Assembly: GCF_000314735.2 (NCBI RefSeq)
Contig: NZ_KB375270.1
Coordinates: 2,170,001-2,234,000, forward strand
Length of the DNA: 64,000 bases
Source of the DNA: Afipia felis ATCC 53690
GTDB lineage: Bacteria; Pseudomonadota; Alphaproteobacteria; Rhizobiales; Xanthobacteraceae
Direction: 5' to 3'
This document shows, piece by piece, positions 44,587 through 63,678 of this stretch. The notes under the pieces are model-generated. The model saw only the letters and a list, made by a program, of their open reading frames with translations. It was not told where the DNA came from and did no database searches. Every line of letters starts with the position of its first letter. Position 1 is the stretch's first letter. The position numbers and the translations under genes are program-made.

Positions 44587-44695
44587 GTTCCTTTACGGCG
44601 TTCCGTGAAAACGCCGCTCACTCTTTCAATGCGATCGTCCGGCCTGATGCGATTCGATCAAAGCGGGCATTCGCGTTACAATGTGCACGGCCGTC

Positions 44696-45565: not shown

Positions 45566-45566
45566 A

Positions 45567-45719
45567 TCAATCTTCCTCGAAAGGAATACGGGAGGCATCG
45601 TCGGCGAGACTGCGGCTGCCGGGACGAAACGCGAAAATGATGGCGCCGATGAAGAACAGGGTCATGCACAACAGACCCCAACTGTCGGCCATGTGCCGCA
45701 TGGCGGTGTAGGTTTCCAT
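45567..45719 (-). CDS. ccoQ: cbb3 oxidase small subunit CcoQ
   Basis: A 50-residue single-helix protein: METYTAMRHMADSWGLLCMT, then LFFIGAIIFAFRPGS and an acidic tail. Size, helix and position between ccoO and ccoP identify it. It stabilises the complex. It has one base between its stop and the ccoP start. Confidence 0.88.
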   Translation of the reverse strand: METYTAMRHMADSWGLLCMTLFFIGAIIFAFRPGSRSLADDASRIPFEED

Positions 45720-45729
45720 CCTCTCCTCC

Positions 45730-46461
45730 TCAGCGATAGCCAGCAGCATCGTCATAGGTCGAGAAATCGACCAGCGTGCCGAGCATCTGGAGATAGGCGA
45801 CGAGCGCATCCATTTCGGTCAACATCTGCTTGTTGCCGTCGAAATTGCCGGCCTTGGCCTTCGGATAGCGGGATTCCAGACCGCTCGAATCAGCATCTGG
45901 ATCGGCCTGCGCCTTCAAATCCGCTTCGGCGTTGGCGACCATCTCGTCCGTATAGGGAACGCCGACACGACGGTTGGCGACCAGATGAGCCGATATCTCG
46001 CTGGTGTCGAGCGGCTTGTCCTTGAGGAAGGCATAGCTCGGCATCACCGACTCAGGCACGACCGAGCGCGGCTCGATCAGATGTTGGACATGCCATTCGT
46101 TCGAATAGCGCTGGCCGACACGCGCGAGGTCAGGGCCGGTACGCTTCGATCCCCACTGGAAGGAATGGTCGTACATCGATTCCGCCGCGAGGCTGTAATG
46201 GCCATAGCGTTCGACCTCGTCACGGAACGGCCGGATCATCTGCGAATGGCAGGCATAGCAGCCCTCGCGAACGTAGATGTTGCGGCCCGCGAGTTCGAGC
46301 GGCGTATAGGGACGCATGCCGTCGACCTTTTCGACCGTGTTCTGCAGATAGAACAGCGGCGCGATCTCGACGATACCCCCCACCGTGACCACTGCGAGCG
46401 ATGCGATCAACAGCAGCGTCGCGTTCTTCTCGAGCTTGGAGTGGTTCTTCAAAACAGACAT
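45730..46461 (-). CDS. ccoO: cbb3 cytochrome oxidase subunit II, monohaem CcoO
   Basis: A 243-residue membrane-anchored cytochrome c. The helix is near 14-36 and the haem motif CYACHSQ at 68-72 sits in [18 protein letters not shown], which is diagnostic. The distal Met is probably in VMPSYAFL. It starts 13 bp after ccoN and ends 10 bp before ccoQ. Confidence 0.93.
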
Positions 46462-46474
46462 TGATCTTCGCTCC

Positions 46475-48097: not shown

Positions 48098-48185
48098 GAA
48101 ATGGTCCCCTGACATGACTCACGAAGGCCGGTGCTACGGACACCGGCCTCGAACTGACCTTTTCCGCATTTTGCGCGCGGACGCC

Positions 48186-48271: not shown

Positions 48272-49318
48272 TTAATCTCCTTCGGACCGCCACTCGTCCC
48301 CGACAAGTGCAGCATCCCTTGGCACATCGAAGGAAGATGACTGCTCGTTGACGAATTCCGCTGCCGTCAGCGCGCGGCGGTTGACCTTGAGCTGGAAGAC
48401 ATCGAAGCGGTTGTAGTAGCCGACGACATCCTGGAACTGCTTCGGCACGACACACAGCGACAGATCGATATCGGCGTAGACGATGCCTTCTTCATCCTTG
48501 AGGACATTGCTGATCGGCGCACCGCCCGGACCGATGATGAGCGAGACGCTCTTGGAGGCTTCCTCCAGAAGCTGGCGGACGCGCGCGTTGTCCCGGCTAA
48601 TGATATCGATCGCCTCCGGCGGCAGGAAACCCGAAGCCACGATGTTGAATAGCTTGCCTTCGAACGCATGCGCGCCTGCTCGCAAGCGGATCGCAGCCTC
48701 AAGATCGTAAGCCACTTCGCCCGGCGGGTGGGTTGGCCAACGCGGTGAGAACGAGGAAATATGGACGTTCTCTCCCTGCGCGAGCAGCGCGAAGCGCGCG
48801 AGGCCGTTGGTATTCTCGCCGCAAACCAGCGCGCCGATGCGGCCAAGCCGGGTGTTGACCACGCGTAGGCCAGAACCGTCGCCGTTGCTCCAGGTCAGCT
48901 TTTCCCAATAAGTCGGAACGAGCTTGCGATGGACGTTCAGAAGCGAACCGTCGTCGCCGATCAGCACATTGGTATCGTAAATGCAGCCGTCGCTGATCGG
49001 CGAGGCCTCATTGATACCCATGGAGACGAACACGCCGTGACGGCGCGCCACACCGCGGATGCGCGCCAATTCCGGCCCGTCAATTTCGACCGACGAGGCT
49101 GCGAGCTTGCAAAAGAATTCATGGACATCGACCGGCGCCCATACGCCGGACCACACCGGGAACGAAGCGATGAAGGCCTCCGGGAATGCGATCAACTCCG
49201 CACCATTGCGCGCGGCCTCCTCGATCAGCGCGCAAGCCTTGTCGACGGTCGCATGCGCATCGAAATAAACCGGAGCCGCATGACAGGCAGCCGCCTTGAA
49301 GCGTGGATACTGTTTCAT
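48272..49318 (-). CDS. Nitrilase (copy 1), next to a mandelate-racemase-like gene
   Basis: A 348-residue carbon-nitrogen hydrolase of the nitrilase branch, hydrolysing a nitrile directly to acid and ammonia. The catalytic triad is Glu47 (IAFPEAFI), Lys132 (VHRKLVPTYWEK) and Cys166 (LVCGENTNGLARF); CGENTN is typical of true aliphatic or aryl-aceto nitrilases. Its C-terminal DVVGYYNRFDVFQLKVNRR matches the second nitrilase at 58104, so the two are paralogues or co-inherited relatives. AGGGA lies before the ATG. It is 39 bp after the racemase gene. Exact substrate unknown; an alpha-hydroxynitrile is suggested by that neighbour. Confidence 0.87.
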   Translation of the reverse strand: MKQYPRFKAAACHAAPVYFDAHATVDKACALIEEAARNGAELIAFPEAFIASFPVWSGVWAPVDVHEFFCKLAASSVEIDGPELARIRGVARRHGVFVSMGINEASPISDGCIYDTNVLIGDDGSLLNVHRKLVPTYWEKLTWSNGDGSGLRVVNTRLGRIGALVCGENTNGLARFALLAQGENVHISSFSPRWPTHPPGEVAYDLEAAIRLRAGAHAFEGKLFNIVASGFLPPEAIDIISRDNARVRQLLEEASKSVSLIIGPGGAPISNVLKDEEGIVYADIDLSLCVVPKQFQDVVGYYNRFDVFQLKVNRRALTAAEFVNEQSSSFDVPRDAALVGDEWRSEGD

Positions 49319-49357
49319 CCCTGGTTCCCTCTCGTTATCTATTGTTTGAAGTCGCTG

Positions 49358-50476
49358 TCAGACGAGCAGCTTCGCGATCGCCGCCTCATTCCATTCGATG
49401 CCGAGGCCGGGCGCATCGTCGGCGCGCACCTTGCCGCCCCGCACCGGCAGTGACTTTGCGAGAACCGGACCGGCGAGATCGAAATACTCGATGAACTGCG
49501 CGGTCGGCGTCACCGCCATCAGATGCGCGCTCGCCTCCTGGAAGAAGTGATTGCTGACGGGCATGCGCACGGCGTGGCAGATCGCTGCAGCGCGGAGCCA
49601 GCCGCTGACACCGCCGACCTTGATCAGGTCCGGCATCATCAGATCGGATGCACCAAGACGAATGCTCTCGGCGATATCCTGCGGACCCCACAGATTTTCG
49701 CCGAGTTGAAGCGGAGTGCGGATGCCGGCAGCGATCTTGGCGTGTCCTGCCGTGTCGTCGTAGGCCGTCGGCTCCTCGATCCAGGTCAGCCCCTCATCGT
49801 CGAGCGCATAGCAGCGCCGGATCGCTTCGGGGACATTGAGGCTTTGATTGTAGTCGATCAGCAGAGCGGCATCGCCAATCGCGCGCTTGACGGCACGGAT
49901 CACAGCAAGATCGTCAGCGAAGTCCTCATATCCGACCTTGATCTTTACCGCGCCGAAGCCCTGCGCGATCGCTTCCGTCGTGGAACGCACGGCGTCTTCG
50001 AGCCCATCCATGCCGAAGCTTGCATAGGCCGGCAGATCGATCGGCACGCCACCGAGAAGACGCACCAGTGGCTGCTTCAGATGAAGCGCATACGCGTCCC
50101 ACAGCGCGATATCGAGTGCCGCCAGCGCCATGTCGATCAGACCGCGGCTGCCGATCAGCACGAAGCGCGCACGCAATGCCTGCATCAGCACCTGCGGCTG
50201 GAGCGGCTTTCCTTCCAGCAGCTCAGAGATATCCGCCGTAAGACGCGTCAACGACGCAAGCACCACCGGCGTATAGGCGAATGCATAGCTGCGCCCGGCG
50301 ACCCCACCGCTGGTCGCAATATCGACAAGCACCAGCGGCGCACTACTCATGACACCGCTTGCGGTCCGCAACGGACGCTGCATGGGCGCGACAACGCCGC
50401 GAACCACAATCCTCGTGATGTTCGGGACATCGTGCACAGGCCTGTCCGTCGACGGCGGCATAGATGGCTGATACAC
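49358..50476 (-). CDS. Mandelate racemase-like enolase-superfamily enzyme
   Basis: A 372-residue enzyme strikingly close to Pseudomonas mandelate racemase as I remember it. The KxK base is K178/K180 (AVKIKVGY), metal ligands are in IDYNQSLNVPEAI (D208), WIEEPT (E234/E235) and LGENLWGP (E260), and the catalytic His310 is in SNHFFQEASAHLM, paired with Asp283 (MPDLIKVGGV) and Glu330. All racemase catalysts are kept. GTG at 50476 with AAAGGGGG upstream is the likely start; the frame is open to 50521. It would interconvert (R)- and (S)-mandelate or a similar 2-hydroxy acid made by the adjacent nitrilase. Confidence 0.84.
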   Translation of the reverse strand: MYQPSMPPSTDRPVHDVPNITRIVVRGVVAPMQRPLRTASGVMSSAPLVLVDIATSGGVAGRSYAFAYTPVVLASLTRLTADISELLEGKPLQPQVLMQALRARFVLIGSRGLIDMALAALDIALWDAYALHLKQPLVRLLGGVPIDLPAYASFGMDGLEDAVRSTTEAIAQGFGAVKIKVGYEDFADDLAVIRAVKRAIGDAALLIDYNQSLNVPEAIRRCYALDDEGLTWIEEPTAYDDTAGHAKIAAGIRTPLQLGENLWGPQDIAESIRLGASDLMMPDLIKVGGVSGWLRAAAICHAVRMPVSNHFFQEASAHLMAVTPTAQFIEYFDLAGPVLAKSLPVRGGKVRADDAPGLGIEWNEAAIAKLLV

Positions 50477-50649
50477 CGGGCGGCCCCCTTTTATGTTCGA
50501 TGCCGCAGCCGATACGCGCACCCGTGCATCTGCCTGGTGTCATCAAAACTCGGGTGACGGCGGTCGCTCCGTCAAGGACGGATGCGGGTCAGCCCGGGTG
50601 TAGACCGCCCGGGGGCCGGCATAAATTGAAATGGAATCGCAATATTATT

Positions 50650-50659
50650 GCCTGCAGGC
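50650..50659. promoter_or_regulatory. Candidate palindromic site between LysR and racemase genes
   Basis: GCCTGCAGGC is a perfect 10-bp palindrome within AT-rich flanks, 174 bp before the racemase-like start. It sits in the 231-bp gap 50477-50707. The palindrome is short and could be chance. Confidence 0.3.
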
Positions 50660-50707
50660 TAATTATGCCCAATCGACGTTTTAAGGCACACACCGCACGC
50701 TGCGCGA

Positions 50708-51595
50708 TCAAGCCCCTGTCCGCGACAGAGCCGATTTTCCGATCTGCGCGATCAGCGCGCGGGTTGCCGGTGACCATTCGCTGCGCCGGTAGGCAACTGC
50801 GATCTCCGACAGGATCGGCGGAGCGGTCAGGTCGCGGTAGACAACGCGGCCGATATTCACGGCATGGCGTAACGAGCCCGGCACGATGGCAACGCCCGCG
50901 CCAAGCGAGACATAGGTGATGACCGCGGTGAGCCGTCCAGGCTGCGGACCCAGATTGGGCTTGAACCCTCCTCGCCGGCCGACTTCCAGCGTTCCGGCAA
51001 TCTGCTCGGGAAGAACGAAAGTCTCCTTCTCGAGCTGCGACGGCTTGATGCGTTGCTGGCTTGCAAGACGGTGTCCGCGCGGTAGGGCAACGACAAACGG
51101 ATCGCGCAGCAGCGTCATGGACGTCACGCTGGCGGGATAGGTCATCGGCGGACGAAGGAAAGCGATATCGATCCGGCCGTCATCCAGCATCTCCGGCAAG
51201 CGATCCATGTCGACTTCGTGAAACTGAAGATCGACCCCCGGATGAGACTTCCGGTACAGCATCGCTTCCCGTTGCAGAAGGCCGACATAGGCCGTGGAGG
51301 CGACATAGCCGACCACGATGCATCCGGCTTCACCGCGCCCGGCACGGCGGGCCGTGTCTTCCGCCCGTTCCACCTGACTCAGAAGCCGGCGTGCATCCTG
51401 AAGAAAGATCTCTCCCGCGGCGGTGAGAAAAACCTTGCGCTTGGTGCGCTGGAACAGGCGCACGCCGAGTTCGCGCTCGATTTCTTGAATCTGTTTGGTC
51501 ATGGAGGGCGGGCTGATGCCGACATCGTCAGCCGCCTGCGAGAAATGCAGGCGGCTGGCAGCAGCGACAAAGTAGCGATACTGGCGCAGCTCCAT
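50708..51595 (-). CDS. LysR family regulator, next to racemase and nitrilase copy 1
   Basis: A 295-residue LysR-type regulator with the HTH at about 3-60 (YFVAAASRLHFSQAADDVGISPPSMTKQIQEIERELG) and an effector domain from about 88 (GCIVVGYVASTAYVGLLQ). It reads in the same direction as the racemase and nitrilase genes downstream, so it probably controls them or the divergent side. The ATG at 51595 with GAGG upstream is preferred to the GTG at 51601. Confidence 0.88.
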   Translation of the reverse strand: MELRQYRYFVAAASRLHFSQAADDVGISPPSMTKQIQEIERELGVRLFQRTKRKVFLTAAGEIFLQDARRLLSQVERAEDTARRAGRGEAGCIVVGYVASTAYVGLLQREAMLYRKSHPGVDLQFHEVDMDRLPEMLDDGRIDIAFLRPPMTYPASVTSMTLLRDPFVVALPRGHRLASQQRIKPSQLEKETFVLPEQIAGTLEVGRRGGFKPNLGPQPGRLTAVITYVSLGAGVAIVPGSLRHAVNIGRVVYRDLTAPPILSEIAVAYRRSEWSPATRALIAQIGKSALSRTGA

Positions 51596-51846
51596 AGTCA
51601 CCGCCTCAATTCCAAAGATGCTGGTCTACACCACCTACTCAAGTCACCCTCGCCCACTCACGAGGCGGCGCGCCAGCTCAACAACCAATTGATGTTTATC
51701 GAAAAAATGGCATGTCCGAAAGAATTCGAACCTCTGCCCAGATTTGGAGTCTCGCGAAAACATTGAAATCGTTGATATCTGCTATCGTAAGGATCGCCAA
51801 TTTTGTAATTTTCGTTGAAAATCAGAGTGACTAAAATGACGCGTTA

Positions 51847-51932: not shown

Positions 51933-52826
51933 ATGTTCAATTGGAATGACCTGGTCTTCTTTCTCGAACTGGCGCGGCAGAATCGGCTCGCCCCGGCGGC
52001 GCGACGGCTGCGGGTGGATCACACCACAGTCAGCCGACGAATTTCCGAACTCGAGAAAAACCTGTCGGTCAAACTTTTCGACCGCAAGCCGGACGGCTTC
52101 GTCCTAACCGAACAAGGCCACCGCCTGTTCGTTGTCGCCGAACGAATCGAGCAGGAAATCGGCAACGTGCCGCAGGCGCTGGGTGCCGAAGACATGGCAG
52201 CGACCGGCCGCGTCCGCGTCGTCACCATGGAAGGAATCGGTGCTTTCTTTCTCGCCGAACGCCTGGCCGAGTTGGCTCAGCGCCAGCCGGGTATCGTGGT
52301 CGAACTGGTGACGGAGCGTCATATCGTCAGCCTGACCAAGCGCGAGGCCGACATCGTCATCAGCTTTGTTCCGCCAACGGGTCAGCGCCTCGTCGTCAAG
52401 AAGCTGGGCACCTTCCGTCTCGCCCTCTATGCCAGCTCGGGCTACATCAGCCAGCATGGAATGCCGAAGGATCACTCCGAGCTGATCCATCACACCTTCG
52501 TCGACTACGTCGAGGACCTGATCGCGATCCAGCCGGTGCGCTGGCTGCTCGATGTAATCGACCCGCTCACCGTTTCGTTTCGCTCGTCCAGCATGCACGC
52601 TCAGCAGAATGCAATTGCGGCCGGAGCAGGCATCGGATTACTTCCGCTGTTTTCCGCGAAACGAAACCCAGGTCTGGTGCCGGTCCTCGCCAACGCGGTG
52701 CAGGTACACCGCGACATTTACCTGTCGGTGCACGAGGATCTGGAATTCCTGGCACGGGTGCGCTCGGTGATCCGCCATCTCGGCGACGTGTTCCAGCGCG
52801 ACAACGCCTACATGAACGAATTCTAG
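51933..52826 (+). CDS. LysR family regulator, next to the ABC importer operon
   Basis: A 297-residue LysR-type regulator. Its HTH (about 3-60, DLVFFLELARQNRLAPAARRLRVDHTTVSRRISELEKN) has the DHTTVSRRI form of the subgroup that often represses or activates from an isolated position. The effector domain starts near 95 (RVRVVTMEGIGAFFLAERL). The stop codon lies in a 17-bp-stem hairpin. It converges on the importer operon and is divergent from the other LysR gene. Confidence 0.86.
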   Translation: MFNWNDLVFFLELARQNRLAPAARRLRVDHTTVSRRISELEKNLSVKLFDRKPDGFVLTEQGHRLFVVAERIEQEIGNVPQALGAEDMAATGRVRVVTMEGIGAFFLAERLAELAQRQPGIVVELVTERHIVSLTKREADIVISFVPPTGQRLVVKKLGTFRLALYASSGYISQHGMPKDHSELIHHTFVDYVEDLIAIQPVRWLLDVIDPLTVSFRSSSMHAQQNAIAAGAGIGLLPLFSAKRNPGLVPVLANAVQVHRDIYLSVHEDLEFLARVRSVIRHLGDVFQRDNAYMNEF

Positions 52827-52864: not shown

Positions 52865-54145
52865 TCAGATCGCGGTCTTGGTGAAATCGAAGCGTGGCGG
52901 AAGCGCTTTGATCATCTCTTCCTTCGTGACCTTTTTCTTCACCTCGAACTTGCCGTTTTCGACACGGGAAATATAGCAATCCACCATGCCGGAATGATCT
53001 TCGCGGCGGAGCAGCTTTTCGCCCTGTGGATGACCGAGAGAATTGGCGAGCTTGGCGCCCTCGAGCGCCTCAATCACCAACTTATCGTCCTTTTTCGTCT
53101 TCCAGCCCGAAGTCTCGATCGCCTGCTTGATCGCGAAGACATTCTCCCACGACTGCCAGGCATGGCTCTTGGCCATCACCCGCTGCGAGTTGGACTCGCG
53201 CGCGTCGACATCGTCGATCCCCATCCGCTTATTATGCTCGCGATGAAATTCATCATCCTTGTATTTGAGCACCCGCGGGAAGTTCTCGACGATATAAACA
53301 CCCTCGCCCGCCCCCTGAAGATCGTTCGGCGCGATCGCTTCCATCGTTCCGCAGATCGAATACATCTTCATGGTCTTTTCCAGCCCCATCGACTTGGCCT
53401 GGGTATAGAAAGCGACCGACTGCGCGCCGAAGAACACCGAGAACAGGACCTGTGTCTCCTGCGGAATCTTGGCGAGATAAGGCACCATGTCCTTGGCATC
53501 GAGCGGCACGAAGATCGGATCGTTGACCTTGCCACCAAGCTTTTCGATGACCGCTTTGTGCTCCTGATAGTGGCTGTGACCCCAGGCATAGTCCGGCGAA
53601 ATGATCGTCCAGTTCTTGCCGAGATTCTCGAAGGCCCACGGTGCACCCGCGGCTGCCAGCGCATAGGTGTCGGTGCCGGTGCGGAACGAATAGCGGCTGC
53701 CCTTCGAGCCTGTCGCTTCCGTCGCCTCGCCCGCCGAGAAGTAGACGGTCTTGAGTTCGGTCGCGACCGGAATGGCCGACAGCATGACGCCGGAATGAAC
53801 CGAGCCGACGATGAAGTTCGCACCGCTTCGCTCGATCAGAGACCGCAGCTTGCGGGTGCCGGTCGCAGGATTCGATTCGGTGTCTTCAGTAACGAGTTCA
53901 ACCTTACGGCCGGCGATGCCACCCTGCTCGTTGACAAGCGCCACCGCGGCCTTCGCCGCCTTATCGTGCCAGTATCCCCACGACGCAAAGCCACCGGTGA
54001 GTTCGCAATGATTTCCGAGAATGATCGGGCCGCCATCGCGAGCATAGAGATCGCGCGTCAGGCCAAGATAGGCAGTGCCCGCTGCCACGCCTCCGGACAA
54101 GGCATGGGACAGAAAGCTTCTCCGATTCAGTCTGTATTTGCTCAT
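52865..54145 (-). CDS. ABC transporter substrate-binding protein, branched-chain/amide (HAAT) type, Tat-exported
   Basis: A 426-residue periplasmic binding protein of the type I, LivK/AmiC-like class. A twin-Arg signal (LNRRSFLSHALSGG, Arg8-Arg9) replaces the usual Sec signal. HCELTGGFASWGYWHDKAAKAAVALVNEQGGIAGRKVELV is the standard ligand-cleft start of this class. The ATG at 54145 with GGAG upstream is preferred to 54157. It is 23 bp after livF on the same strand and so is the last gene of a five-gene importer. Ligands of such systems include amides, urea and aromatic acids as well as amino acids; a nitrile-derived compound is the contextual guess. Confidence 0.86.
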   Translation of the reverse strand: MSKYRLNRRSFLSHALSGGVAAGTAYLGLTRDLYARDGGPIILGNHCELTGGFASWGYWHDKAAKAAVALVNEQGGIAGRKVELVTEDTESNPATGTRKLRSLIERSGANFIVGSVHSGVMLSAIPVATELKTVYFSAGEATEATGSKGSRYSFRTGTDTYALAAAGAPWAFENLGKNWTIISPDYAWGHSHYQEHKAVIEKLGGKVNDPIFVPLDAKDMVPYLAKIPQETQVLFSVFFGAQSVAFYTQAKSMGLEKTMKMYSICGTMEAIAPNDLQGAGEGVYIVENFPRVLKYKDDEFHREHNKRMGIDDVDARESNSQRVMAKSHAWQSWENVFAIKQAIETSGWKTKKDDKLVIEALEGAKLANSLGHPQGEKLLRREDHSGMVDCYISRVENGKFEVKKKVTKEEMIKALPPRFDFTKTAI

Positions 54146-54168
54146 GACATTCTCCATACCTTTTCACT

Positions 54169-54876
54169 TCAGATCGATACGCCAAGATAGCGATGAACAG
54201 CCGAAGGATCGGCGGAAAGCTGTTCCGGCGTTGCCTCATGGACGACAACGCCTTTTTCCATCAGATAAATGCGGCTCGCGAGCTTGAGCGCGGTGCGCAG
54301 ATTCTGCTCGACCAGAAGCACGGCGACGCCGCGACTGGCGATGGTAGAAATTTCGCGCCGGATTTCGTTAACGAGCTTGGGCATGATGCCCTCGGTCGGC
54401 TCGTCGAGAAGGATCAGCTTGGGAGAGCGCATCAAGCAGCGCCCGAGCGCAAGTATCTGCTGTTCGCCGCCGGACAATGTCCCGGCGCTCTGGTATCGCC
54501 GCTCGAGAAGGCGGGAAAACCGGCCGTAAATATAATCGAGAATGGCGGGGTCGGGCCGCTCGCGCAATCCGAGGAACAGATTCTCCTCGACCGTCAGATG
54601 CGGAAAGATGCCGCGCCCCTGCGGCACGTAACCAATGCCCTGGCTGCTGACGCGATGCGCGGGCAGCCGCGCAAGATCCTCGCCATTGAAATGCACATGG
54701 CCGCTTTTGCGTGCAAGCAGGCCCAGAACCGCGCGCAACGTCGAGGTCTTCCCCACGCCGTTACGCCCAAGCAACGCAACGGTCTCGCCCGGCTGAACAT
54801 GCAACTGAACGCCGCGCAAAACCGGGACGCGCCCGATCGAAGCCGTGAGATTGACGACATCCAGAACCGGCTTCAT
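54169..54876 (-). CDS. livF: Branched-chain-type ABC importer ATPase, LivF
   Basis: A 235-residue ABC ATPase with Walker A LLGRNGVGKTS, signature LSGGEQQILALGR and Walker B LILLDEPTEGIMP. The LivF-type INTEGRITY is complete and the length normal. Its ATG overlaps the livG stop (ATGA, 54873-54876). Confidence 0.9.
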   Translation of the reverse strand: MKPVLDVVNLTASIGRVPVLRGVQLHVQPGETVALLGRNGVGKTSTLRAVLGLLARKSGHVHFNGEDLARLPAHRVSSQGIGYVPQGRGIFPHLTVEENLFLGLRERPDPAILDYIYGRFSRLLERRYQSAGTLSGGEQQILALGRCLMRSPKLILLDEPTEGIMPKLVNEIRREISTIASRGVAVLLVEQNLRTALKLASRIYLMEKGVVVHEATPEQLSADPSAVHRYLGVSI

Positions 54877-55625
54877 TCCACTTCCTCCGGCGTGCCGAGA
54901 TAGACTTCCTGAACCTTGTCGTTCCTGGCTACTTCATCCGGCGTGCCCTGCACCAGAAGGCGCCCCTGCGCCATCACGGTGATGAGATCCGCAATCTTGA
55001 AAACAACTTCCATGTCGTGTTCGATGAGAATGACATCGATCGTGCGGGCAAGCTCGGTGATACGCTCCACCGTTCGCTCGGTTTCGCTCGGGCTCATGCC
55101 GCAGATCGGCTCGTCCAACAGCAAAAGCCGGGGCCGGTTGGCGAGCGCGAGCGCGATTTCCAGCAATGCGACGTCGCCATAAGACAACGCGCCAGCGCTC
55201 GCCGAGGCGAGGCGGTCAAGCCCAGTCTCCTGCAGGATTTCGTCGACACGCCTGCTGATGTCGCGATAGCCGCGCGCAGGACGAAACGGATTCGACACAC
55301 CTTCATTGGCGAACACGGCGATCCGGATGTTGTCCCTCACCGACATGCCGCCGAACACGCTCTTGATCTGCAGCGTGCGGGACAGACCTCGCGCGACGAT
55401 CTGGTGTGGAGGCTTGCCGATCAGATCCTCGTCCTGAAAGAAGACATGGCCGGACGTCGCAGGCAAAATCCCGGTTATGAGATTAAACAGCGTTGTCTTG
55501 CCCGCGCCGTTCGGACCGATCACCGCATTGAGAATGCCCTTCGGAAAGCGGATGTCGATATTATCGACCGCGGTGAGACCGCCAAAACGCTTGGTCAACC
55601 CCTGTATTTCGAGCGCCGTTTCCAT
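54873..55625 (-). CDS. livG: Branched-chain-type ABC importer ATPase, LivG
   Basis: A 250-residue ATPase with Walker A GPNGAGKTTLF, signature LSYGDVALLEIALAL (a usual LivG variant), Walker B LLLLDEPICGMSPSE and the switch His in LIEHDMEVVF. The start at 55625 follows the livM stop by 5 bp; the long frame beyond it overlaps livM. Confidence 0.9.
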   Translation of the reverse strand: METALEIQGLTKRFGGLTAVDNIDIRFPKGILNAVIGPNGAGKTTLFNLITGILPATSGHVFFQDEDLIGKPPHQIVARGLSRTLQIKSVFGGMSVRDNIRIAVFANEGVSNPFRPARGYRDISRRVDEILQETGLDRLASASAGALSYGDVALLEIALALANRPRLLLLDEPICGMSPSETERTVERITELARTIDVILIEHDMEVVFKIADLITVMAQGRLLVQGTPDEVARNDKVQEVYLGTPEEVE

Positions 55626-55630
55626 GCCGC

Positions 55631-56638
55631 TTAGTCCGCCTGTGCCAGGGATTCGATGTCGGATTCCATCCGATCGTCCTTGCGCTCGCGCCGGTTGATC
55701 AGATCGTTGAAGATTCCGACGATACCGCGCGGCGCAAACATCACGACAAGGATGACCAGTGCACCAACTGCGATGAGGTAATTTTCCCAGATGCCGGAGA
55801 TGACTTCGCGGAACAGGATCAGGAGCGCTGTGCCGATAAATGGTCCAAGCAACGTCCCGGCGCCGCCGACAATGCTCCACACCACAGCTTCGCCGGACAC
55901 GTGATAGAACATATAGGACGCCGACGCATAGCGGCCGAACAATGCGAACAGCGCCCCGCCGACGCCGGCAAAAAATCCGGCGATTACGAAAGCTATCCAG
56001 CGTGTCAGGTAGACGTTGATGCCGATCAGCGAAGCCCGATTTTCGTTATCGCGCACCGCCGCGAACCGCATTCCGAGCGGGCTCGCAACGAGCAGCGCGA
56101 ACAAAGCGAAGCAGGCAAAAACGACGATGTAGATGAAATAGAACTGCGTCACGCGGTCGGTCAGGGATAATCCCGCCGCCTCCCACAATGCAGGCGTACT
56201 AAAAGACAGGCCGTCGTCGCCACCGGTGATCGACTTCGCCGACATCGCGACGAAATAAAAGATCAGCGAGAACACGACCGTGATGATCGCGAAGTAGTGC
56301 CAGGTCAGGCGAACGGCCACCGCCCCGGAAATGGCCGCCATCGCGCTCGCAGCTCCAACACCGAGGAAGAAAGCGGGCCACAAGCCAAGGCCGAAATGGC
56401 TGATGCCGATCGCCACGCCGTACATGCCGAAGCCGAAATAAAGCGCCTGACCGAACGACAGCAGCCCGACATAACCAAGCAACAGGTTGACGCTTGCGGC
56501 GAGCAGCGACCAGATCATGATCTCTGCGATGACGTTGATCCAGAACAGGTTGCCGGTCTGCTGAAGGATCAATGGAGCGCAAGCCAGCGAGATGGCAACG
56601 ACGGCGATGCCCGCCCATTTTATGCGGCTGGCTATCAT
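55631..56638 (-). CDS. livM: Branched-chain-type ABC importer permease, LivM
   Basis: A 335-residue permease with about ten helices and the LivM signature AAVRDNENRASLIGINVYLTRW, and SASYMFYHVSGEAVVWSIVGGAGTLLGPFIGT near the end. Its ATG overlaps the livH stop by 4 bases. Confidence 0.9.
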   Translation of the reverse strand: MIASRIKWAGIAVVAISLACAPLILQQTGNLFWINVIAEIMIWSLLAASVNLLLGYVGLLSFGQALYFGFGMYGVAIGISHFGLGLWPAFFLGVGAASAMAAISGAVAVRLTWHYFAIITVVFSLIFYFVAMSAKSITGGDDGLSFSTPALWEAAGLSLTDRVTQFYFIYIVVFACFALFALLVASPLGMRFAAVRDNENRASLIGINVYLTRWIAFVIAGFFAGVGGALFALFGRYASASYMFYHVSGEAVVWSIVGGAGTLLGPFIGTALLILFREVISGIWENYLIAVGALVILVVMFAPRGIVGIFNDLINRRERKDDRMESDIESLAQAD

Positions 56639-57489
56639 CGGGTTGCTCCTGCAAAGAGACCGTTCGGCTTGAGCAGAAGAACACCGCTCATCACGGCAAG
56701 GGACGTGATTCGGGCAAGCGTGGGATCGGCAAAGCTCGACACCAGTCCTTCGAGCACCGCGAGAAGAAGCGCCGCCGCGACAGTCCCCTTGAGGTTACCA
56801 AGGCCGCCGATCACGACGGCCATGAAGCTCACCGGAAGAATGTCGACGCCGGTGCGAAATTCGACCGTGGTGATCGGCGCGGCAATGGCACCGCCCAGAA
56901 GCGCCATTGCAGTGCCAAGGCCAAAGGTGAACGCACAGACTCGCGTGACCGGAATGCCGAGCGCTGTCGCCGTTTCACGATCGTGGCGTACAGCGCGGAT
57001 CCATGTTCCAAGCCTCGTACGGGACAGAAACAGGAAAAAGGCGGCAATACACAGCGCAGCGAACGCTGCCGCAAACAGCCGATAAACGTCATATTCGAGA
57101 CCGAACAATGGAATGGTGCCAGGAATCGGCGGAGCCATACGGCGAGCCTGCGCACCAAACGTCGCACGCACAGTTTCCTGCAAAATCATGGACAGCCCGA
57201 ATGTCGTGACGATGGTCAACGATGCGGCGCTGATGGTCGGCCGGATGACAAGACGCTCGATAACAAGACCGAGTGCGAGGCCGATCAGCGGCACCAGAAC
57301 GAGCGCGATCCAGAAACCTGTCGTCCCCGCAATGACCAGCGCCAATACCGTGCCGACCATGAAAAAGTCGCCGTGCGCCACGTTGATGATGTCGAGAAGG
57401 CCGAAAATGATCGAAAGGCCGAGCGCTATCAGAGCAACGATCAGCCCCCACACCAAGCCGTTGATTGTCAAGGCAATGACAAGATCCAT
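56635..57489 (-). CDS. livH: Branched-chain-type ABC importer permease, LivH
   Basis: A 284-residue permease with about eight helices and the family stretches GLSIIFGLLDIINVAHGDFFMVG and RAVRHDRETATALGIPVTRV. The ATG at 57489 has GGCGGAG upstream. It is the first gene of the leftward operon livH-livM-livG-livF-binding protein, divergent from the nitrilase-matA-matB operon. Confidence 0.9.
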   Translation of the reverse strand: MDLVIALTINGLVWGLIVALIALGLSIIFGLLDIINVAHGDFFMVGTVLALVIAGTTGFWIALVLVPLIGLALGLVIERLVIRPTISAASLTIVTTFGLSMILQETVRATFGAQARRMAPPIPGTIPLFGLEYDVYRLFAAAFAALCIAAFFLFLSRTRLGTWIRAVRHDRETATALGIPVTRVCAFTFGLGTAMALLGGAIAAPITTVEFRTGVDILPVSFMAVVIGGLGNLKGTVAAALLLAVLEGLVSSFADPTLARITSLAVMSGVLLLKPNGLFAGATR

Positions 57490-58103
57490 GCGCTCCGCCC
57501 AAATTATCGTTTTCGCAGGACCAGAAAGCTTCCGCCCGGCTTTTGACAAGTTTGCAACACTTCCCTGTCGGTGGAAGCGAGAAAACATGCAAGTGGCTTT
57601 GCGCAAATGATCTGTCGTATTTGCGTGCAGTTGCACAATGGATGGCCACGGCCATAGGCTGATGCACGGACTGTTCTCGCAAACCGCCGGTGAAGCGACT
57701 ATTGCCGTTCAAATCCAACGTATGACCATCCGAACGAGATTTTTCGCGCCGCAAAATCGCGCAGCCATACGACTTGAGGAATGACAGTAAGACTGCTGGT
57801 TGGCCAAGACGATATGTCGCGGCAGGCACACCTGCTTCACCGCGTCACGTAACAGAACATCCAGCAAACCTCGCCTGAGTCAATCACGCCATAATAATGG
57901 CGGCGGCGGACAGCCGATGATATCGCGAAGGCATCGCACTTGCAGTCTTCATACCTCACACGCAACCCAACCGGGTGTAGCGTGACAAAACGTTTCGTCG
58001 ATCCCAAGATGCTTGCAACACGCCTTGCAAGATTCGGCATCATTGCTCTTGAACAGACGTGCTAGCCTCCACCTCGCAATAAACAGAACGCGAGGTTTGA
58101 GTC
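57490..58103. other. 614-bp divergent intergenic region
   Basis: This gap carries the promoters of the importer (left) and the nitrilase-matAB operon (right). No ORF here shows family features. A 6-bp-arm inverted repeat, CGCCAT-N4-ATGGCG, lies at 57887-57902 near its middle. It is unusually long for this window, so it may hold several regulator sites or a small RNA; neither can be shown from sequence alone. Confidence 0.6.
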
Positions 58104-59168
58104 ATGTCGTCGCTTGTGAAAGTTGCTGCGGTTCATGCCGCGCCAGTCTTTCTCGATCGTTCCGCTACAACGGCGAAAGCGATTTCAATCCTGCGGGAAG
58201 CGGCGAATGCAGGCGCGGAATTGGTCGCATTTCCTGAAACCTATATTCCGGCATTTCCAGTCTGGGCCGCTCTATGGGCGCCGATCGACAATCACGACCT
58301 GTTCACGCTGATGGCCGAGCAATCCGTGTCGCTGCACGGCCCTGAAATCGCTGCACTACGCCGCGAGGCCCGCACGCTCGGTGTGATTGTCTCAATGGGC
58401 ATCAGCGAAAGTTCGAGCGCCAGCGTCGGCGCCATCTGGAACAGCAATATTCTGATCGGCAGCAACGGCGACATTCTCAACCATCACCGCAAGCTCGTAC
58501 CTACTTTCTACGAAAAGCTGGTATGGGCACCAGGCGACGGTGCCGGCCTCAGGGTCTCTTCGACGTCTATCGGACGAATCGGCAACCTGATCTGCGGCGA
58601 GAATACCAATCCGCTTGCGCGCTATACATTGATGGCCCAGGCCGAGCAGATTCATATTTCGAGCTGGCCGCCGATGTGGCCGACCCGTCGGCCGAGCAGT
58701 GGCGGCAATTTCAACAACGTTGCAGCGAATCGGATCCGTGCCAGCGCGCATTCCTTCGAAGCTAAAGCCTACGGCATCGTGACGGCCGGCTACATGGATG
58801 CCTCGATGCGCGATTTCCTCGTCGCGCGCGATCCGTCCGTGGTCGAGGTCATCGACCGTACACAGCGCGCCGCGAGTTTCTTTGTCGATCCGACCGGCGA
58901 AGCCGTGGGTGACCTGCTGCAGGACCAGGAAGGCATCGCCTACGCCGAGTTCGATCTGACTCGCTGCATCGAACCGAAACAATTTCATGACGTGGTCGGC
59001 TACTATAACCGTTTCGACGTCTTCGATCTCACGGTTAACCGCAAACGCCTGAAGCCTGCCACCTTCCTGGATATCGCCGACACTCCGGCCGCCTCCGAGA
59101 CGGATGAGAGCAACACACTGGACGACGCTCTCTCGCGGAGCAGTAATGGAGGGCGTCTGGATGCGTGA
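58104..59168 (+). CDS. Nitrilase (copy 2), first gene of a malonate-forming operon
   Basis: A 354-residue true nitrilase. The triad is Glu45 (VAFPETYI), Lys130 (HHRKLVPTFYEK) and Cys164 (LICGENTNPLARY). CGENTNPLARY and SWPPMWPTR are typical of active aliphatic and arylaceto nitrilases. It overlaps the malonyl-CoA decarboxylase start by 8 bases, and malonyl-CoA synthetase follows, so its product is probably malonate. Candidate substrates are cyanoacetate or malononitrile (inference from context). The C-terminus (about 325-354) is Ser/Asp-rich. Copy 1 at 48272 shares the same C-terminal signature. Confidence 0.88.
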   Translation: MSSLVKVAAVHAAPVFLDRSATTAKAISILREAANAGAELVAFPETYIPAFPVWAALWAPIDNHDLFTLMAEQSVSLHGPEIAALRREARTLGVIVSMGISESSSASVGAIWNSNILIGSNGDILNHHRKLVPTFYEKLVWAPGDGAGLRVSSTSIGRIGNLICGENTNPLARYTLMAQAEQIHISSWPPMWPTRRPSSGGNFNNVAANRIRASAHSFEAKAYGIVTAGYMDASMRDFLVARDPSVVEVIDRTQRAASFFVDPTGEAVGDLLQDQEGIAYAEFDLTRCIEPKQFHDVVGYYNRFDVFDLTVNRKRLKPATFLDIADTPAASETDESNTLDDALSRSSNGGRLDA

Positions 59169-60528
59169 GAGTTTCTTCGCTGATCTGCTGGCCCAGATCG
59201 CGGATCGCGGCCGCGCACTATTTCCGGGAAGCCGTCGGGTTCCGCTCTTAGGACATCAGCCCGACATTCGCGATCTGTGCAATGCCTTGCTCTCAAGGCG
59301 TGGCGAAGCGTCCGGCGTTGCGCTGGCTGACCAGATTCTGAACATCTGGAGCCAGAGCGACAGCGAACGCAAGAAGCGTTTCCTGCTGGATCTCGTGGCC
59401 GATTTCGGCCCATCGCTTCCGCAGTTCGAGGCTGCGATAGCGACATGGAAAGAACAACGCTCGGAAGCGACCCTCCGCGCGGTCCATGCAGCCGCTGAAC
59501 CCCGCCGCCAGGAACTTATTCGCCGCCTCAATCTCGCACCGGGGGGCACGCGCAGGCTGGTTTCAATGCGCGAGGAGATTTTCGCTCATCGTAAAGAGCA
59601 TCCCGAGCTCGACATTCTCGACGCCGATTTCGTGCATCTATTCTCATCCTGGTTCAACCGGGGCTTCCTGGTGCTAAGGCGGATCGACTGGTCTACTTCC
59701 GCCAATATCCTGGAAAAAATTATCCGCTACGAAGCGGTGCATGCCATCGATGACTGGACCGAGTTGCGACGGCGAATCGAGCCGGAAGACCGCAGGCTGT
59801 TTGCATTCTTCCATCCGCAGATGACGGACGAGCCCCTGATATTCGTCGAGGTCGCGTTGACGCGAGACATTCCCGACAGTATCGCGCCGCTGCTTGCGCC
59901 GGATCGTCAGGCAATCAGCACTGCCGAGGCCGACACCGCGGTGTTCTATTCGATTTCAAACTGTCAGGAAGGTTTGCGCGGCGTGTCGTTCGGCAACTTC
60001 CTCATCAAGCAGGTGGTTGAGGATCTTCGGCGCGAGCTGCCCAATCTTCGCACGTTCGTGACATTGTCACCGGTCCCCGGTTTTGCCAAATGGCTCGACC
60101 GGCAACTGGGCACCGCTCCGGCCTGGTTGACGCCAGCCGACATAGAGGCACTGGACATTCTGCGGCGAGGCGGCGGCATCACCAACGATCAGGAACGTGG
60201 ACATCTTGCCGTCACGCTTGACGGAGCGGCGGCACAATACTTCCTGATGGAGAAGAACAACCACCAGAAGCCGATCGACCCGGTGGCGCGGTTTCATCTC
60301 GGCAATGGCGCGAGGCTCGAACGCCTCAATCCTTTCGGCGACATCTCCGCGAACGGCATTCGCCAATCCTACGGGCTGATGGTCAACTATCTCTACGATC
60401 TTAAGAGCATCGAGGAGAACCACGAGGCATTCGCAGAAGCCGGGGAAGTGGCGGCATCGTCCACCGTGCGCAACAAGCTGCGCCCCACAACCGCTGAACG
60501 CAAGGACAGCAAGAAGATCGTAGCGTAA
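59161..60528 (+). CDS. matA: Malonyl-CoA decarboxylase
   Basis: A 455-residue cytoplasmic enzyme converting malonyl-CoA to acetyl-CoA and CO2. A helical N-terminal domain (about 1-165) precedes a GNAT-like catalytic domain (about 166-440). Key stretches are VHLFSSWFNRGFLVLRRIDW, EALDILRRGGG, FYSISNCQEGLRGVSFGNFLIKQV, TLSPVPGF (the catalytic Ser region) and FHLGNGARLERLNPFGD with the catalytic His. ATG at 59161 has GGAGG 8 bases before it, inside the nitrilase 3' end, so the two genes are coupled. The next gene, matB, makes its substrate. Confidence 0.9.
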   Translation: MRESFFADLLAQIADRGRALFPGSRRVPLLGHQPDIRDLCNALLSRRGEASGVALADQILNIWSQSDSERKKRFLLDLVADFGPSLPQFEAAIATWKEQRSEATLRAVHAAAEPRRQELIRRLNLAPGGTRRLVSMREEIFAHRKEHPELDILDADFVHLFSSWFNRGFLVLRRIDWSTSANILEKIIRYEAVHAIDDWTELRRRIEPEDRRLFAFFHPQMTDEPLIFVEVALTRDIPDSIAPLLAPDRQAISTAEADTAVFYSISNCQEGLRGVSFGNFLIKQVVEDLRRELPNLRTFVTLSPVPGFAKWLDRQLGTAPAWLTPADIEALDILRRGGGITNDQERGHLAVTLDGAAAQYFLMEKNNHQKPIDPVARFHLGNGARLERLNPFGDISANGIRQSYGLMVNYLYDLKSIEENHEAFAEAGEVAASSTVRNKLRPTTAERKDSKKIVA

Positions 60529-60546
60529 CTCAAGGCGGGAACGATC

Positions 60547-62076
60547 ATGACAGGCGAAACGGCCAATCTGTACACGGCCTTCGTCGCGCGCTGCGCGAAC
60601 CTCGACAAGACCTTTATCGAAACGCAGGACGAACGCCGCATCCGCTATCGCGAGGCTTTCAATCTTGCCGGACAGATTGCCAATGTCCTGAAAGACAAGG
60701 GCGTCAGGCCGCTCGATCGCGTCGCAGTCCAGGTCGAGAAATCAGCCGAAGCTTTGATCCTGTATCTGGCGTGCTTGCGCATAGGGGCGATCTATCTTCC
60801 GCTGAACACCGCCTATACGCTGAGTGAGCTTGACTACTTCATCAATGATGCCGAGCCGCGCGTCGTAGTTTGTGCACCCGGCTCTCACGACGGTATTCAG
60901 TCGCTCATGACGCGCCTGTCGGGGGCGTCGGTTCTTACCTTGGGAACGCAGGGAGACGGATCCCTGATGCTGCTGGCGCAAACTGCACCCACCCACATCG
61001 ACGCCGCACCATGCCGCCCCGACGACATCGCAGCTATCCTTTATACATCCGGCACCACCGGACGCTCCAAGGGCGCGATGCTGACCCATCGCAATCTCCG
61101 CTCGAACGCCGAGACGCTGGCGGCCGCATGGTGCTTCACGGCAGACGACGTCCTGCTTCATGCACTGCCGCTGTTTCACACTCATGGCCTGTTCGTCGCC
61201 ACCAACATCGTCCTGACGACCGGTGCATCGATGATCCTGATGCCGAAATTCGACCCCTCGGTCATTCGCGAGAGGCTTCCCGAAGCCACGGTGATGATGG
61301 GCGTACCTACATTTTATACCCGGCTGCTTCAGGAAGATTGGCTGGATGCGAAGACTGTGGCGCATATGCGCCTGTTCGTATCAGGCTCGGCTCCACTGCT
61401 GGCCGACACCCATCGCGAGTGGAGCGAGCGCACCGGCCACGCCATTCTTGAACGTTACGGCATGACGGAAACCAACATGATCACCTCCAATCCTTATTCT
61501 GGCTCGCGCATTCCCGGAACAGTTGGAACAGCGCTTGCCGGCATCGAGGTGATCGTTACGGATCCGCAGACTGGCGCCGTTCTCCCGAATGGCCAAGTCG
61601 GCGTGGTCGAGGTACGCGGGCCGAACGTCTTCAAGGGCTACTGGCGGATGCCGGAGAAAACTGAGGCCGAGTTGCGCAGCAACGGCTTCTTCATTACCGG
61701 CGACCTCGGCAAGCTCGACGACAAGGGCGTGCTCTCGATTGTCGGCCGCGGCAAGGATCTTGTTATCACCGGGGGGTACAACGTCTACCCCAAGGAAGTG
61801 GAAACCCAGATCGACGGGATTGACGGTGTCGTCGAGAGCGCCGTAATCGGCGTGCAGCACCCTGATTTTGGCGAAGGTGTTACGGCAATCGTCGTCAAGG
61901 CCGCCGCCAGCAATCTCAGCGAGGGCGCTATCGTGAAGGCGCTGGATAACCGGCTCGCGAAATTTAAGCTGCCGAAACGTATAATCTTTGTGGATGAGCT
62001 CCCACGCAACACGATGGGCAAGGTCCTGAAGGACGCGCTCCGGGCCCAATACAAATCGATCTATACTTCAGGGTAG
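60547..62076 (+). CDS. matB: Malonyl-CoA synthetase (malonate--CoA ligase)
   Basis: A 509-residue ANL ligase that activates malonate with ATP and CoA. AMP-binding motif LYTSGTTGRSKGAMLTHRNL and C-terminal PRNTMGKVLK with the catalytic Lys are intact. ERYGMTETNMITSNPYSG is the motif I associate with MatB rather than with other acyl-CoA synthetases. It starts 18 bp after matA. Together with matA it gives the standard malonate to acetyl-CoA route of rhizobia. No malonate carrier (MatC) gene follows, so uptake is presumably by another system such as the divergent importer. Confidence 0.9.
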   Translation: MTGETANLYTAFVARCANLDKTFIETQDERRIRYREAFNLAGQIANVLKDKGVRPLDRVAVQVEKSAEALILYLACLRIGAIYLPLNTAYTLSELDYFINDAEPRVVVCAPGSHDGIQSLMTRLSGASVLTLGTQGDGSLMLLAQTAPTHIDAAPCRPDDIAAILYTSGTTGRSKGAMLTHRNLRSNAETLAAAWCFTADDVLLHALPLFHTHGLFVATNIVLTTGASMILMPKFDPSVIRERLPEATVMMGVPTFYTRLLQEDWLDAKTVAHMRLFVSGSAPLLADTHREWSERTGHAILERYGMTETNMITSNPYSGSRIPGTVGTALAGIEVIVTDPQTGAVLPNGQVGVVEVRGPNVFKGYWRMPEKTEAELRSNGFFITGDLGKLDDKGVLSIVGRGKDLVITGGYNVYPKEVETQIDGIDGVVESAVIGVQHPDFGEGVTAIVVKAAASNLSEGAIVKALDNRLAKFKLPKRIIFVDELPRNTMGKVLKDALRAQYKSIYTSG

Positions 62077-62090
62077 CTTCATCGGATCGA

Positions 62091-63044
62091 TCATGTATGG
62101 GCCAATTCGCGCGCGGCAAAAGGCGCAGGTAAGCTCATTCGCAATGGAAGAGCTTCCCTCCGCCTCATAATCCGCTCCGGAGTGAAGCGCCATGCCCGCT
62201 CGGCGTCTTCGAGCGGCGCGCGCTCACCGCAAGTGGAGAACACCTCGACCCCGCCCGTCATCTGCAACAAATCGCCGTTCCGCCAATCGACGAACACCAG
62301 GCCTGCACGCGGATTGACAAGAAAGTTGCCGAGTGTGTTGAAGAACATATTTCCCGCATAATCCGGAATCGTGAGTGTGCCGTCTTCCACGATCCGTACA
62401 AATCCGGACCTTCCGCCGCGATGTGATACGTCGACGCGCCGACCTCGCTCATCGTCGACATAGGACGCGACGAAGAACGTATCCGCGCGCACCACCAGTT
62501 CAGCCGGCGCACCCTCGAGGTGCGGTAACTCTTCAACCGTTCCCGGTCCGGCGGTAGCCGGATCGCGAGTGAGCTCCAGATTGCGAGGCGTGATGAAGCG
62601 CGGGCAATTACCAAAAGATTCTTGGACCAGAACCTCGAACGTCTCGCCCTCGCCACGCCGGACGACTCCATTCAGCCGGTTGCGGCGGCGTGTCTCGAGT
62701 TGAATGCCCAGAAGGGCAATGGCGTCGCCATCGTTCATGCCGTTGTCTGCCGGATCCGCGCGGTCACGACCAATCGCAGCACACAGCAGCAACGGATCCG
62801 GCGAGTGGAGAAATCCAGGTACGCCTGCGCGGAGCGTCGCCCACACGTCACCGTTTTCATCAACCGCGCCCAGCACGACGAACGGCAGTTCGGCAAAGAA
62901 AAGGCGATGCTGGTCGATCAGATGGCGGCGGATCACCCGCGGCCCCACCACACCCATACGGTCGGCCACGCCAACACACCGCTGCATATGGACTTCGCCA
63001 GCGTGCCACGGAGAGAACCTATCTTCGTTACTCGGATGTGACAT
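62091..63044 (-). CDS. Pyridoxamine 5'-phosphate oxidase-like FMN flavoprotein
   Basis: A 317-residue protein of the FMN-binding split-barrel group. Stretches that point there are ENGDVWATLRAGVPGFL, NMFFNTLGNFLVNPRAGLVFVDWRNGDLLQMTG and RNLELTRDPATAGPG. It is longer than true PdxH and lacks its usual C-terminus, so a different substrate is likely. The start at 63044 follows GGGGGTGG. It is 13 bp after the GST gene and converges on matB. Confidence 0.75.
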   Translation of the reverse strand: MSHPSNEDRFSPWHAGEVHMQRCVGVADRMGVVGPRVIRRHLIDQHRLFFAELPFVVLGAVDENGDVWATLRAGVPGFLHSPDPLLLCAAIGRDRADPADNGMNDGDAIALLGIQLETRRRNRLNGVVRRGEGETFEVLVQESFGNCPRFITPRNLELTRDPATAGPGTVEELPHLEGAPAELVVRADTFFVASYVDDERGRRVDVSHRGGRSGFVRIVEDGTLTIPDYAGNMFFNTLGNFLVNPRAGLVFVDWRNGDLLQMTGGVEVFSTCGERAPLEDAERAWRFTPERIMRRREALPLRMSLPAPFAARELAHT

Positions 63045-63057
63045 ATGCCACCCCCAA

Positions 63058-63678
63058 TCATGCCCCTGCCTCGAGACCTGCTTTGGTTTTACGGAAGGGG
63101 AAGAAACCGGGCAGCGTTTCAACCCGGCGAAGCCATGACCTGACATTGCCGTAAACAGCGAGATCGACATTCCCTTCCGGAGCACGATCGATGTAGCTGT
63201 AGAGGGCGACGTCCGCGATGCTTGGCTCAACCGTGCCCGCAATCCAATTTTTGTTGTGGAGCTCATCATCCATCACGCGCAGCAAGGCGTGCGATCGCTC
63301 GATGGCCTCTTCGGCATTCAGCTTGTAGCCGAACACCGTGATAAGACGCGCGGCGCAGGGCCCATACGCGACCTTTCCCGCCGCCACCGAAAGCCAGCGC
63401 TGAATGTTTGCGGCCGTGACCGGGTCTTCCGGAAGCCACTCTGTCGTTCCGCCTTTCTTCGCGAGATAGACGAGAATGGCATTGGAATCCGCGATGATGG
63501 TTCCGTCGTCGTCCAGTACCGGCACCTCCCCGAAACGATTGAGCCTCAGAAATTCAGCTGCCTTGTGATCATCTGCCCGAAGGTTAACCTCGACCGGCTC
63601 GTAATCCATGCCGAGCAACGACAGGAAAAGTCGCGCACGGTGTGAGTGGCCTGAGAGTGGTCCATAATAAAGTTTCAT
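63058..63678 (-). CDS. Glutathione S-transferase
   Basis: A 206-residue cytoplasmic GST. The thioredoxin-like N-terminal domain (about 1-80) has [20 protein letters not shown], with the residue after PL (Ser/His region) near the glutathione thiol, cis-Pro in [11 protein letters not shown] and the Ser in [13 protein letters not shown]. The C-terminal helical domain includes [10 protein letters not shown]. It is divergent from the LysR gene at 63782 and upstream of the FMN flavoprotein gene. Detoxification of an electrophile made in the pathway is a guess. Confidence 0.88.

What the first reader, a model, noticed from the sequence alone, without database searches (positions are those of the whole stretch)
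58104..62076. Nitrilase fused by operon to malonyl-CoA decarboxylase and synthetase: a candidate nitrile-to-acetyl-CoA pathway
Seen: nitrilase with an intact Glu45/Lys130/Cys164 triad, then matA overlapping it by 8 bp, then matB 18 bp later, all one strand. Known: MatB makes malonyl-CoA from malonate and MatA decarboxylates it to acetyl-CoA. Inferred: the nitrilase supplies malonate, which fits hydrolysis of cyanoacetate directly, or of malononitrile in two steps. The cell would gain carbon from acetyl-CoA and nitrogen from ammonia. I know of no described operon that joins a nitrilase to matAB.
Basis: partly seen in the sequence, partly recalled or inferred. Interest (0 to 1): 0.85.

Follow-up and report, generated by a model that had tools for sequence, protein, structure and literature searches.

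The report
Nitrilase operon feeding malonate breakdown
In a bacterium related to Afipia, a gene for a nitrile-cutting enzyme shares an operon with two malonate-using genes, which suggests, but does not prove, that the cell turns a small cyano acid such as cyanoacetate into ammonia and acetyl-CoA.

Summary
In detail: nit 58104-59168 (Glu45/Lys130/Cys164), matA 59161-60528 (8-bp overlap) and matB 60547-62076 (18-bp gap) lie on one strand. It is not unique to this strain. The whole block recurs in 3 species of one genus (of 391 family genomes searched), with the overlap kept and dN/dS 0.04-0.09. A matB deletion remnant follows nit in another genus, and Zeimonas arvi, a betaproteobacterium, has nit-matA. 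The mat-linked nitrilases are not one clade (AU p=0.02), but one origin of the linked MatAs is not rejected (p=0.30). An operator-like TTGCAA-N6-TTGCAA lies 91 bp upstream of nit and recurs upstream of nit in relatives.
Against it: 78 of 80 related loci show no mat gene beside nit; transporters, aldoxime dehydratases or a molybdopterin enzyme sit there instead. Still, 19 of 20 beta/gamma carriers tested encode a malonate-decarboxylation route, versus 51 of 150 background genomes, confounded by kinship and genome size.
Best reading: the nitrilase supplies malonate, most plausibly from imported cyanoacetate, for MatB and MatA. The substrate is inferred, not shown.

The parts
58104..59168 (+). 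nit: nitrilase (CN_hydrolase), 354 aa, CGENTN-type active-site motif
59161..60528 (+). matA: malonyl-CoA decarboxylase, 455 aa, overlaps nit by 8 bp (an in-frame upstream ATG at 59104 or 59146 is possible but the 59161 start is the one kept in the 3 species)
60547..62076 (+). matB: malonyl-CoA synthetase, 509 aa
   Evidence: (above curated cut-off)
58013..58030 (.). operator-like TTGCAA-N6-TTGCAA, 91 bp upstream of nit; inferred regulator site
56635..57636 (-). permease 1 of a divergent branched-chain-amino-acid/amide-type (HAAT) ABC transporter; real start probably the internal Met at 57489, as relatives align only from residue about 50
   Evidence: type named by its neighbours and by homology, not by a Pfam scan of this gene
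55631..56638 (-). permease 2 of the same transporter
   Evidence: not Pfam-scanned
54873..55775 (-). ATPase 1 of the same transporter (listed ORF runs to 55880)
   Evidence: ABC_tran, BCA_ABC_TP_C
54169..54876 (-). ATPase 2 of the same transporter
   Evidence: not Pfam-scanned
52865..54157 (-). substrate-binding protein of the same transporter (Peripla_BP_6)
51933..52826 (+). LysR-type regulator (lysR1), presumed regulator of the cluster
62091..63011 (-). PPOX-type flavoprotein; recurrent flank, role unknown
63058..63678 (-). glutathione transferase; recurrent flank, role unknown

Best explanation
A dedicated catabolic operon. A HAAT-type ABC transporter, under a LysR-type regulator, imports a small nitrile that carries a carboxylate, most plausibly cyanoacetate. 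The nitrilase hydrolyses its nitrile group to malonate and ammonia. MatB makes malonyl-CoA from malonate, and MatA decarboxylates that to acetyl-CoA and CO2. The cell gains carbon and nitrogen and avoids build-up of malonate, a known inhibitor of succinate dehydrogenase. Shown: the genes, their tight and conserved order, intact catalytic residues, a second copy of matA and of matB elsewhere in the genome, and a conserved operator-like site. Established for the families: what nitrilases, MatB and MatA do. Inferred: co-transcription, regulation, transport and, above all, that the nitrilase makes malonate.
For: Block conserved in 3 species with dN/dS 0.04-0.09 and identical 8-bp overlap. Separate nit-matA in Zeimonas; linked nitrilases not one clade, AU p 0.0196, so the joining probably occurred more than once; rough chance of such a second find 0.02, treating loci as independent. 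matB remnant right after nit in L004 points to an older, wider operon. The linked MatA is an extra copy in this genome and in Zeimonas. A route from malonate (MdcA over cut-off, or MCD) is present in 19 of 20 beta/gamma carriers; Burkholderiales alone 15 of 15 against 50 of 149 others, Fisher p 3e-7, by genus 11 of 11, p 1e-5. MctC/ActP-like monocarboxylate symporter beside nit in 28 of 80 loci and HAAT-type transporter in 31 of 80. Shared operator upstream of nit in alpha- and betaproteobacterial loci, and upstream of the transporter operon in 4 betaproteobacterial loci. MatB passes its curated cut-off.
Against: No substrate was tested. 78 of 80 related loci have no mat gene beside nit; 5 have an aldoxime dehydratase and 6 a molybdopterin oxidoreductase near it, so the family may serve several nitriles. 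Members of the same genus keep transporter, regulator and nit without mat (L013, L014). One carrier, Halotalea (L074), has neither MdcA nor MCD, and one MCD hit (L064) is a 61-position fragment at a contig end. Background comparison is confounded by kinship and genome size, since the order sample holds many small genomes. AU test does not reject one origin of the linked MatAs, p 0.30. In the window itself the operator has no good counterpart upstream of the transporter (7 to 9 of 12 positions), and the Zeimonas site is weak (9 of 12, p about 0.07). An operon link can reflect co-induction alone.
Confidence: 0.5

Rival explanations
1. The nitrilase works on another nitrile (aryl, aliphatic or aldoxime-derived), and matAB sit with it only because both are wanted in the same setting, such as the surroundings of legumes that are rich in malonate and nitriles.
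For: 78 of 80 relatives without mat beside nit; aldoxime dehydratase near it in 5 (family confirmed for one, L005). A Gly follows the catalytic Cys (CGENTN in 108 of 109 rows) where the three solved relatives aligned have Trp or Ala, which may open the pocket (inference). Bradyrhizobium nitrilase blr3397 prefers hydrocinnamonitrile (passages of PMC3537687 and PMC8280356); whether it belongs to this family was not tested.
Against: An 8-bp overlap kept in 3 species, a second nit-matA pair in a distant lineage, an extra matA and matB, and the excess of malonate routes among carriers.
Confidence: 0.27
2. The hydrolase acts on an amide, malonamate, giving malonate and ammonia, in the manner of malonamidase E2 of Bradyrhizobium (recalled); MatB and MatA then work as above.
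For: Same product and same downstream enzymes; the transporter belongs to a class with urea- and amino-acid-binding relatives.
Against: The protein falls in the true nitrilase branch: best solved relatives are nitrilases, cyanide hydratase and dihydratase; amidases come far lower. Five related loci place it near an aldoxime dehydratase, whose product is a nitrile.
Confidence: 0.1
3. The substrate is 2-cyanopropionate or a similar substituted cyanoacetate, so that MatB makes methylmalonyl-CoA and MatA gives propionyl-CoA.
For: MatB enzymes of this type also take methylmalonate (recalled).
Against: No propionyl-CoA gene was seen beside the operon among the neighbours that were scanned.
Confidence: 0.05

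Closest known systems
matABC malonate operon of rhizobia (recalled)
   Same: Adjacent matA and matB that turn malonate into acetyl-CoA through malonyl-CoA.
   Different: A nitrilase heads the operon; no MatC carrier or GntR-type MatR was found among the flanking genes scanned; uptake genes are a HAAT ABC transporter and the regulator is of LysR type.
Aldoxime-nitrile clusters (aldoxime dehydratase with nitrilase or nitrile hydratase; passages of PMC8955678)
   Same: A nitrilase encoded beside a pathway partner and regulator; some relatives of this very nitrilase do sit near an aldoxime dehydratase.
   Different: Here the partner acts after the nitrilase, on its acid product, not before it; no aldoxime dehydratase among the window genes scanned.
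Nit1C cluster (passages of PMC1199592)
   Same: A conserved gene cluster around a nitrilase.
   Different: None of its partners (radical SAM, GNAT, AIR synthase) was found among the flanking genes scanned.
Malonate decarboxylase (mdc) pathway
   Same: Also degrades malonate; present in 14 of 20 beta/gamma carriers of the nitrilase.
   Different: A different enzyme system; no mdcA lies beside nit in the 80 loci (tblastn with one MdcA).

Membership tests
Nitrilase (nitrilase branch of the CN_hydrolase superfamily) | CN_hydrolase domain over its curated cut-off | tested here: met
   PF00795, 123.3 bits against 23.2
Nitrilase (nitrilase branch of the CN_hydrolase superfamily) | Glu-Lys-Cys triad | tested here: met
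   E45, K130, C164, aligned with solved nitrilases
Nitrilase (nitrilase branch of the CN_hydrolase superfamily) | Hydrolysis of a nitrile | not testable with these tools
   needs an assay
Nit6803 family (TIGR04048) | Score over the equivalog cut-off | tested here: not met
   201.5 bits against 502.6
Malonyl-CoA decarboxylase (MatA) | MCD and MCD_N domains over cut-off | tested here: met
   349.6 against 23.2 and 99.7 against 22.4 bits
Malonyl-CoA synthetase (MatB) | NCBIfam malonyl-CoA synthase over cut-off | tested here: met
   NF005702, 816.2 against 558 bits
Rhizobial matABC operon | matC carrier and GntR-type matR beside matAB (recalled) | tested here: not met
   not among the neighbours scanned with Pfam; not every window ORF was scanned
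Aldoxime-nitrile cluster | aldoxime dehydratase beside the nitrilase | tested here: not met
   no PF13816 hit among the window proteins scanned
Nit1C cluster | radical SAM, GNAT and AIR synthase partners | tested here: not met
   not among the window proteins scanned

The most novel reading that the evidence does not exclude
A natural pathway for cyanoacetate as carbon and nitrogen source, assembled more than once by joining malonyl-CoA decarboxylase genes to one nitrilase family, with carboxylate transporters and a shared operator. The natural source could be legume nitriles, since beta-aminopropionitrile, described from sweet pea, is metabolised to cyanoacetic acid in rats (passage of PMC7921998).
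Probability: 0.3. Interest if true: 0.75.

Novelty: new variant of a known kind. Interest (0 to 1): 0.58.

Why it matters
Most bacterial nitrilases have no known natural substrate. An operon whose downstream enzymes accept essentially one acid predicts the nitrile directly, and so makes the natural role of one large nitrilase family testable by a simple assay. It would also give cyanoacetate, and nitriles that yield it, a defined route into central metabolism.

Tried and rejected
A named precedent was sought and not found: nitrilase with malonyl-CoA decarboxylase, 0 papers; nitrilase with cyanoacetate and malonate, 0; nitrilase with cyanoacetate, 3 papers, none about such an operon by title and abstract start; wider searches listed nothing that describes one. 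Listings were capped at 20, and most subscription papers are not held.

Isoxazolinones as a source of cyanoacetate: one unrelated paper; left as an unsupported idea. Cyanoacetic acid as sole carbon source: one paper, where passages show it used only as a synthesis reagent.

Independent origin of the two linked MatAs: the best tree separates them, but the AU test does not reject one clade, so it is not claimed. MatA beside a HAAT-like permease in two Burkholderiales genomes (L156, L157) looked like a link; in the one read in detail, L185, the neighbours, judged by eye from ORFs, look like branched-chain amino acid metabolism, so it was dropped. A mdcA gene beside nit was sought in the 80 loci and not found. 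A 28% matB-like hit in L011 was judged an unrelated ligase. Rows dropped before the nitrilase tree: duplicates of one locus, and in the AU test also L003, L142, L143 and family duplicates. No structure was predicted.
Full report
Observation. The window is part of a 4.2-Mb genome. Domains and solved relatives are those of a nitrilase, a malonyl-CoA decarboxylase and a malonyl-CoA synthetase. The triad Glu45, Lys130, Cys164 is intact. Cys164 lies in CGENTN, a motif found in 108 of 109 matching loci, some of them duplicates; the exception is the third nitrilase of this genome, L003, with CWEN.

Conservation of the order. All three keep the 8-bp overlap, and dN/dS is 0.044-0.049 for nit, 0.078-0.091 for matA and 0.067-0.093 for matB. 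Each of the three also has the divergent HAAT-type transporter and the LysR gene on its far side. Two other genomes of the genus, L013 and L014, have transporter, LysR and nit but no mat. In L004 (Rhizobiales bacterium 62-47) nit is followed by the last 120 residues or so of a matB at 65% identity, with the rest of matB and matA missing: a deletion remnant.

Elsewhere. Of 255 relatives in genome contigs the best 80 were kept. Within about 3.3 kb of nit these show LysR in 68, an ActP/MctC-like symporter in 28, a HAAT-type transporter in 31 (7 close to the window's, 24 of other kinds), a molybdopterin oxidoreductase in 6, an aldoxime dehydratase in 5, matA in 1 and the matB remnant in 1 (some loci are cut by contig ends). 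Family scans were made on one example each: the symporter of L066 scores 500 bits for the monocarboxylate transporter MctC, under the 670 cut-off, and passes Pfam SSF; the dehydratase of L005 passes PF13816. The one matA is in Zeimonas arvi (L076), directly after nit on the same strand with the same transporter type and LysR upstream. MatA searches of 385 class genomes and 300 Burkholderiales genomes gave 30 loci each with 1.5-kb flanks; apart from the window and Zeimonas none shows nit.

Origins. On a quick nitrilase tree the three window-type nitrilases form one clade (98), while the Zeimonas one lies in a separate, starred betaproteobacterial clade. Holding the four together is rejected, p-AU 0.0196. 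For MatA the best tree separates them too, but one clade is not rejected, p-AU 0.303. So mat genes probably joined nit more than once, or moved by themselves. This genome holds a second MatA (57%) and a second MatB (60%) at distant places, and Zeimonas a second MatA, so the linked genes are extra copies.

Malonate routes in carriers. Twenty of the 24 beta- and gammaproteobacterial loci were taken as genomes. MdcA passes its cut-off in 14 and MCD in 9; together 19 of 20, the miss being Halotalea. In 150 Burkholderiales genomes MdcA passes in 13 and MCD in 40, together 51, one being Zeimonas itself. For Burkholderiales alone that is 15 of 15 against 50 of 149, p 3e-7, or 11 of 11 by genus, p 1e-5. 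In the family of Variovorax MdcA passes in 37 of 260, two of them carriers, against 5 of 6 carriers, p 3e-4, by genus 3 of 4, p 0.01 (family of the six taken from their names). Kinship and genome size confound all of this. Of the alphaproteobacterial carriers 5 were searched and all 5 have a MatA, but not beside nit, and 137 of 385 class genomes have one anyway at that E-value limit.

Regulation. The 3-species alignment upstream of nit shows a fully kept stretch around TTGCAA-N6-TTGCAA, 58013-58030. With up to one mismatch it occurs once in the window, 0.11 expected. Seven distinct loci have it or a one-base variant 82-95 bp upstream of nit: the three species, and L063, L064, L071, L072 of Betaproteobacteria; 11 of 117 rows with duplicates, 0.045 expected in mononucleotide shuffles. 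L013 and L014 match 11 of 12 positions and L004 10 of 12; Zeimonas 9 of 12 and most aldoxime-dehydratase loci no better than chance. In L063, L064, L071 and L072 a match of 11-12 of 12 also lies upstream of the transporter operon; in the window only 7-9 of 12. A LysR operator is a fair guess, not a result.

Mechanism and judgement. MatB and MatA accept malonate and malonyl-CoA (established for the families), so a hydrolase locked to them by an overlapping start most simply supplies malonate. The nitrile that gives malonate in one step is cyanoacetate. It is an anion and would need a carrier, which fits the transporters; malononitrile is neutral and mainly synthetic (general knowledge), so it is less likely as the natural substrate. 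A natural source is conceivable: passages in PMC7921998 say that beta-aminopropionitrile was found in sweet pea and that its major metabolite in rats is cyanoacetic acid. Opposing points are the scarcity of mat beside nit in relatives, the aldoxime dehydratase neighbours, and the lack of any assay. Characterised nitrilases recalled from reviews do not settle it: passages give hydrocinnamonitrile as best substrate of Bradyrhizobium blr3397, whose membership in this family was not tested, and show that another nitrilase, BCJ2315, hydrolyses malononitrile weakly (PMC3599355).

Noticed in passing
48272-51601 (-): A second nitrilase with the same CGENTN motif (51% identical) with an enolase-superfamily gene (49358-50521) and an AlsR-like LysR gene (50708-51601); the trio recurs in G893 (L144: nitrilase 89%, enolase-type 65%, LysR 59%).
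   Followed up: partly
62091-63678 (-): A PPOX-type flavoprotein and a glutathione transferase flank the operon; kept in G221, diverged copies (42% and 50%) on the other side of the cluster in G065, and a GST directly after nit in L063.
   Followed up: partly
L040, L041, L049, L051, L056, L058, L059, L061, L066, L074, L078: In 11 beta/gamma loci an ActP/MctC-like symporter lies directly upstream of nit on the same strand, suggesting a carboxylate substrate for those nitrilases as well.
   Followed up: partly
L005, L006, L010, L050, L069: An aldoxime dehydratase homologue near nit; only the L005 protein was family-scanned (PF13816).
   Followed up: partly
L007, L031, L044: Carriers of this nitrilase include Tardiphaga robiniae Vaf-07, Bosea vaviloviae and Bosea lathyri (titles), whose names point to pea-tribe legumes that make nitriles (recalled).
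   Followed up: no
43024-48115 (-): Genes resembling fixN, fixO, fixP and fixG (cbb3 oxidase) lie beside the second nitrilase.
   Followed up: no
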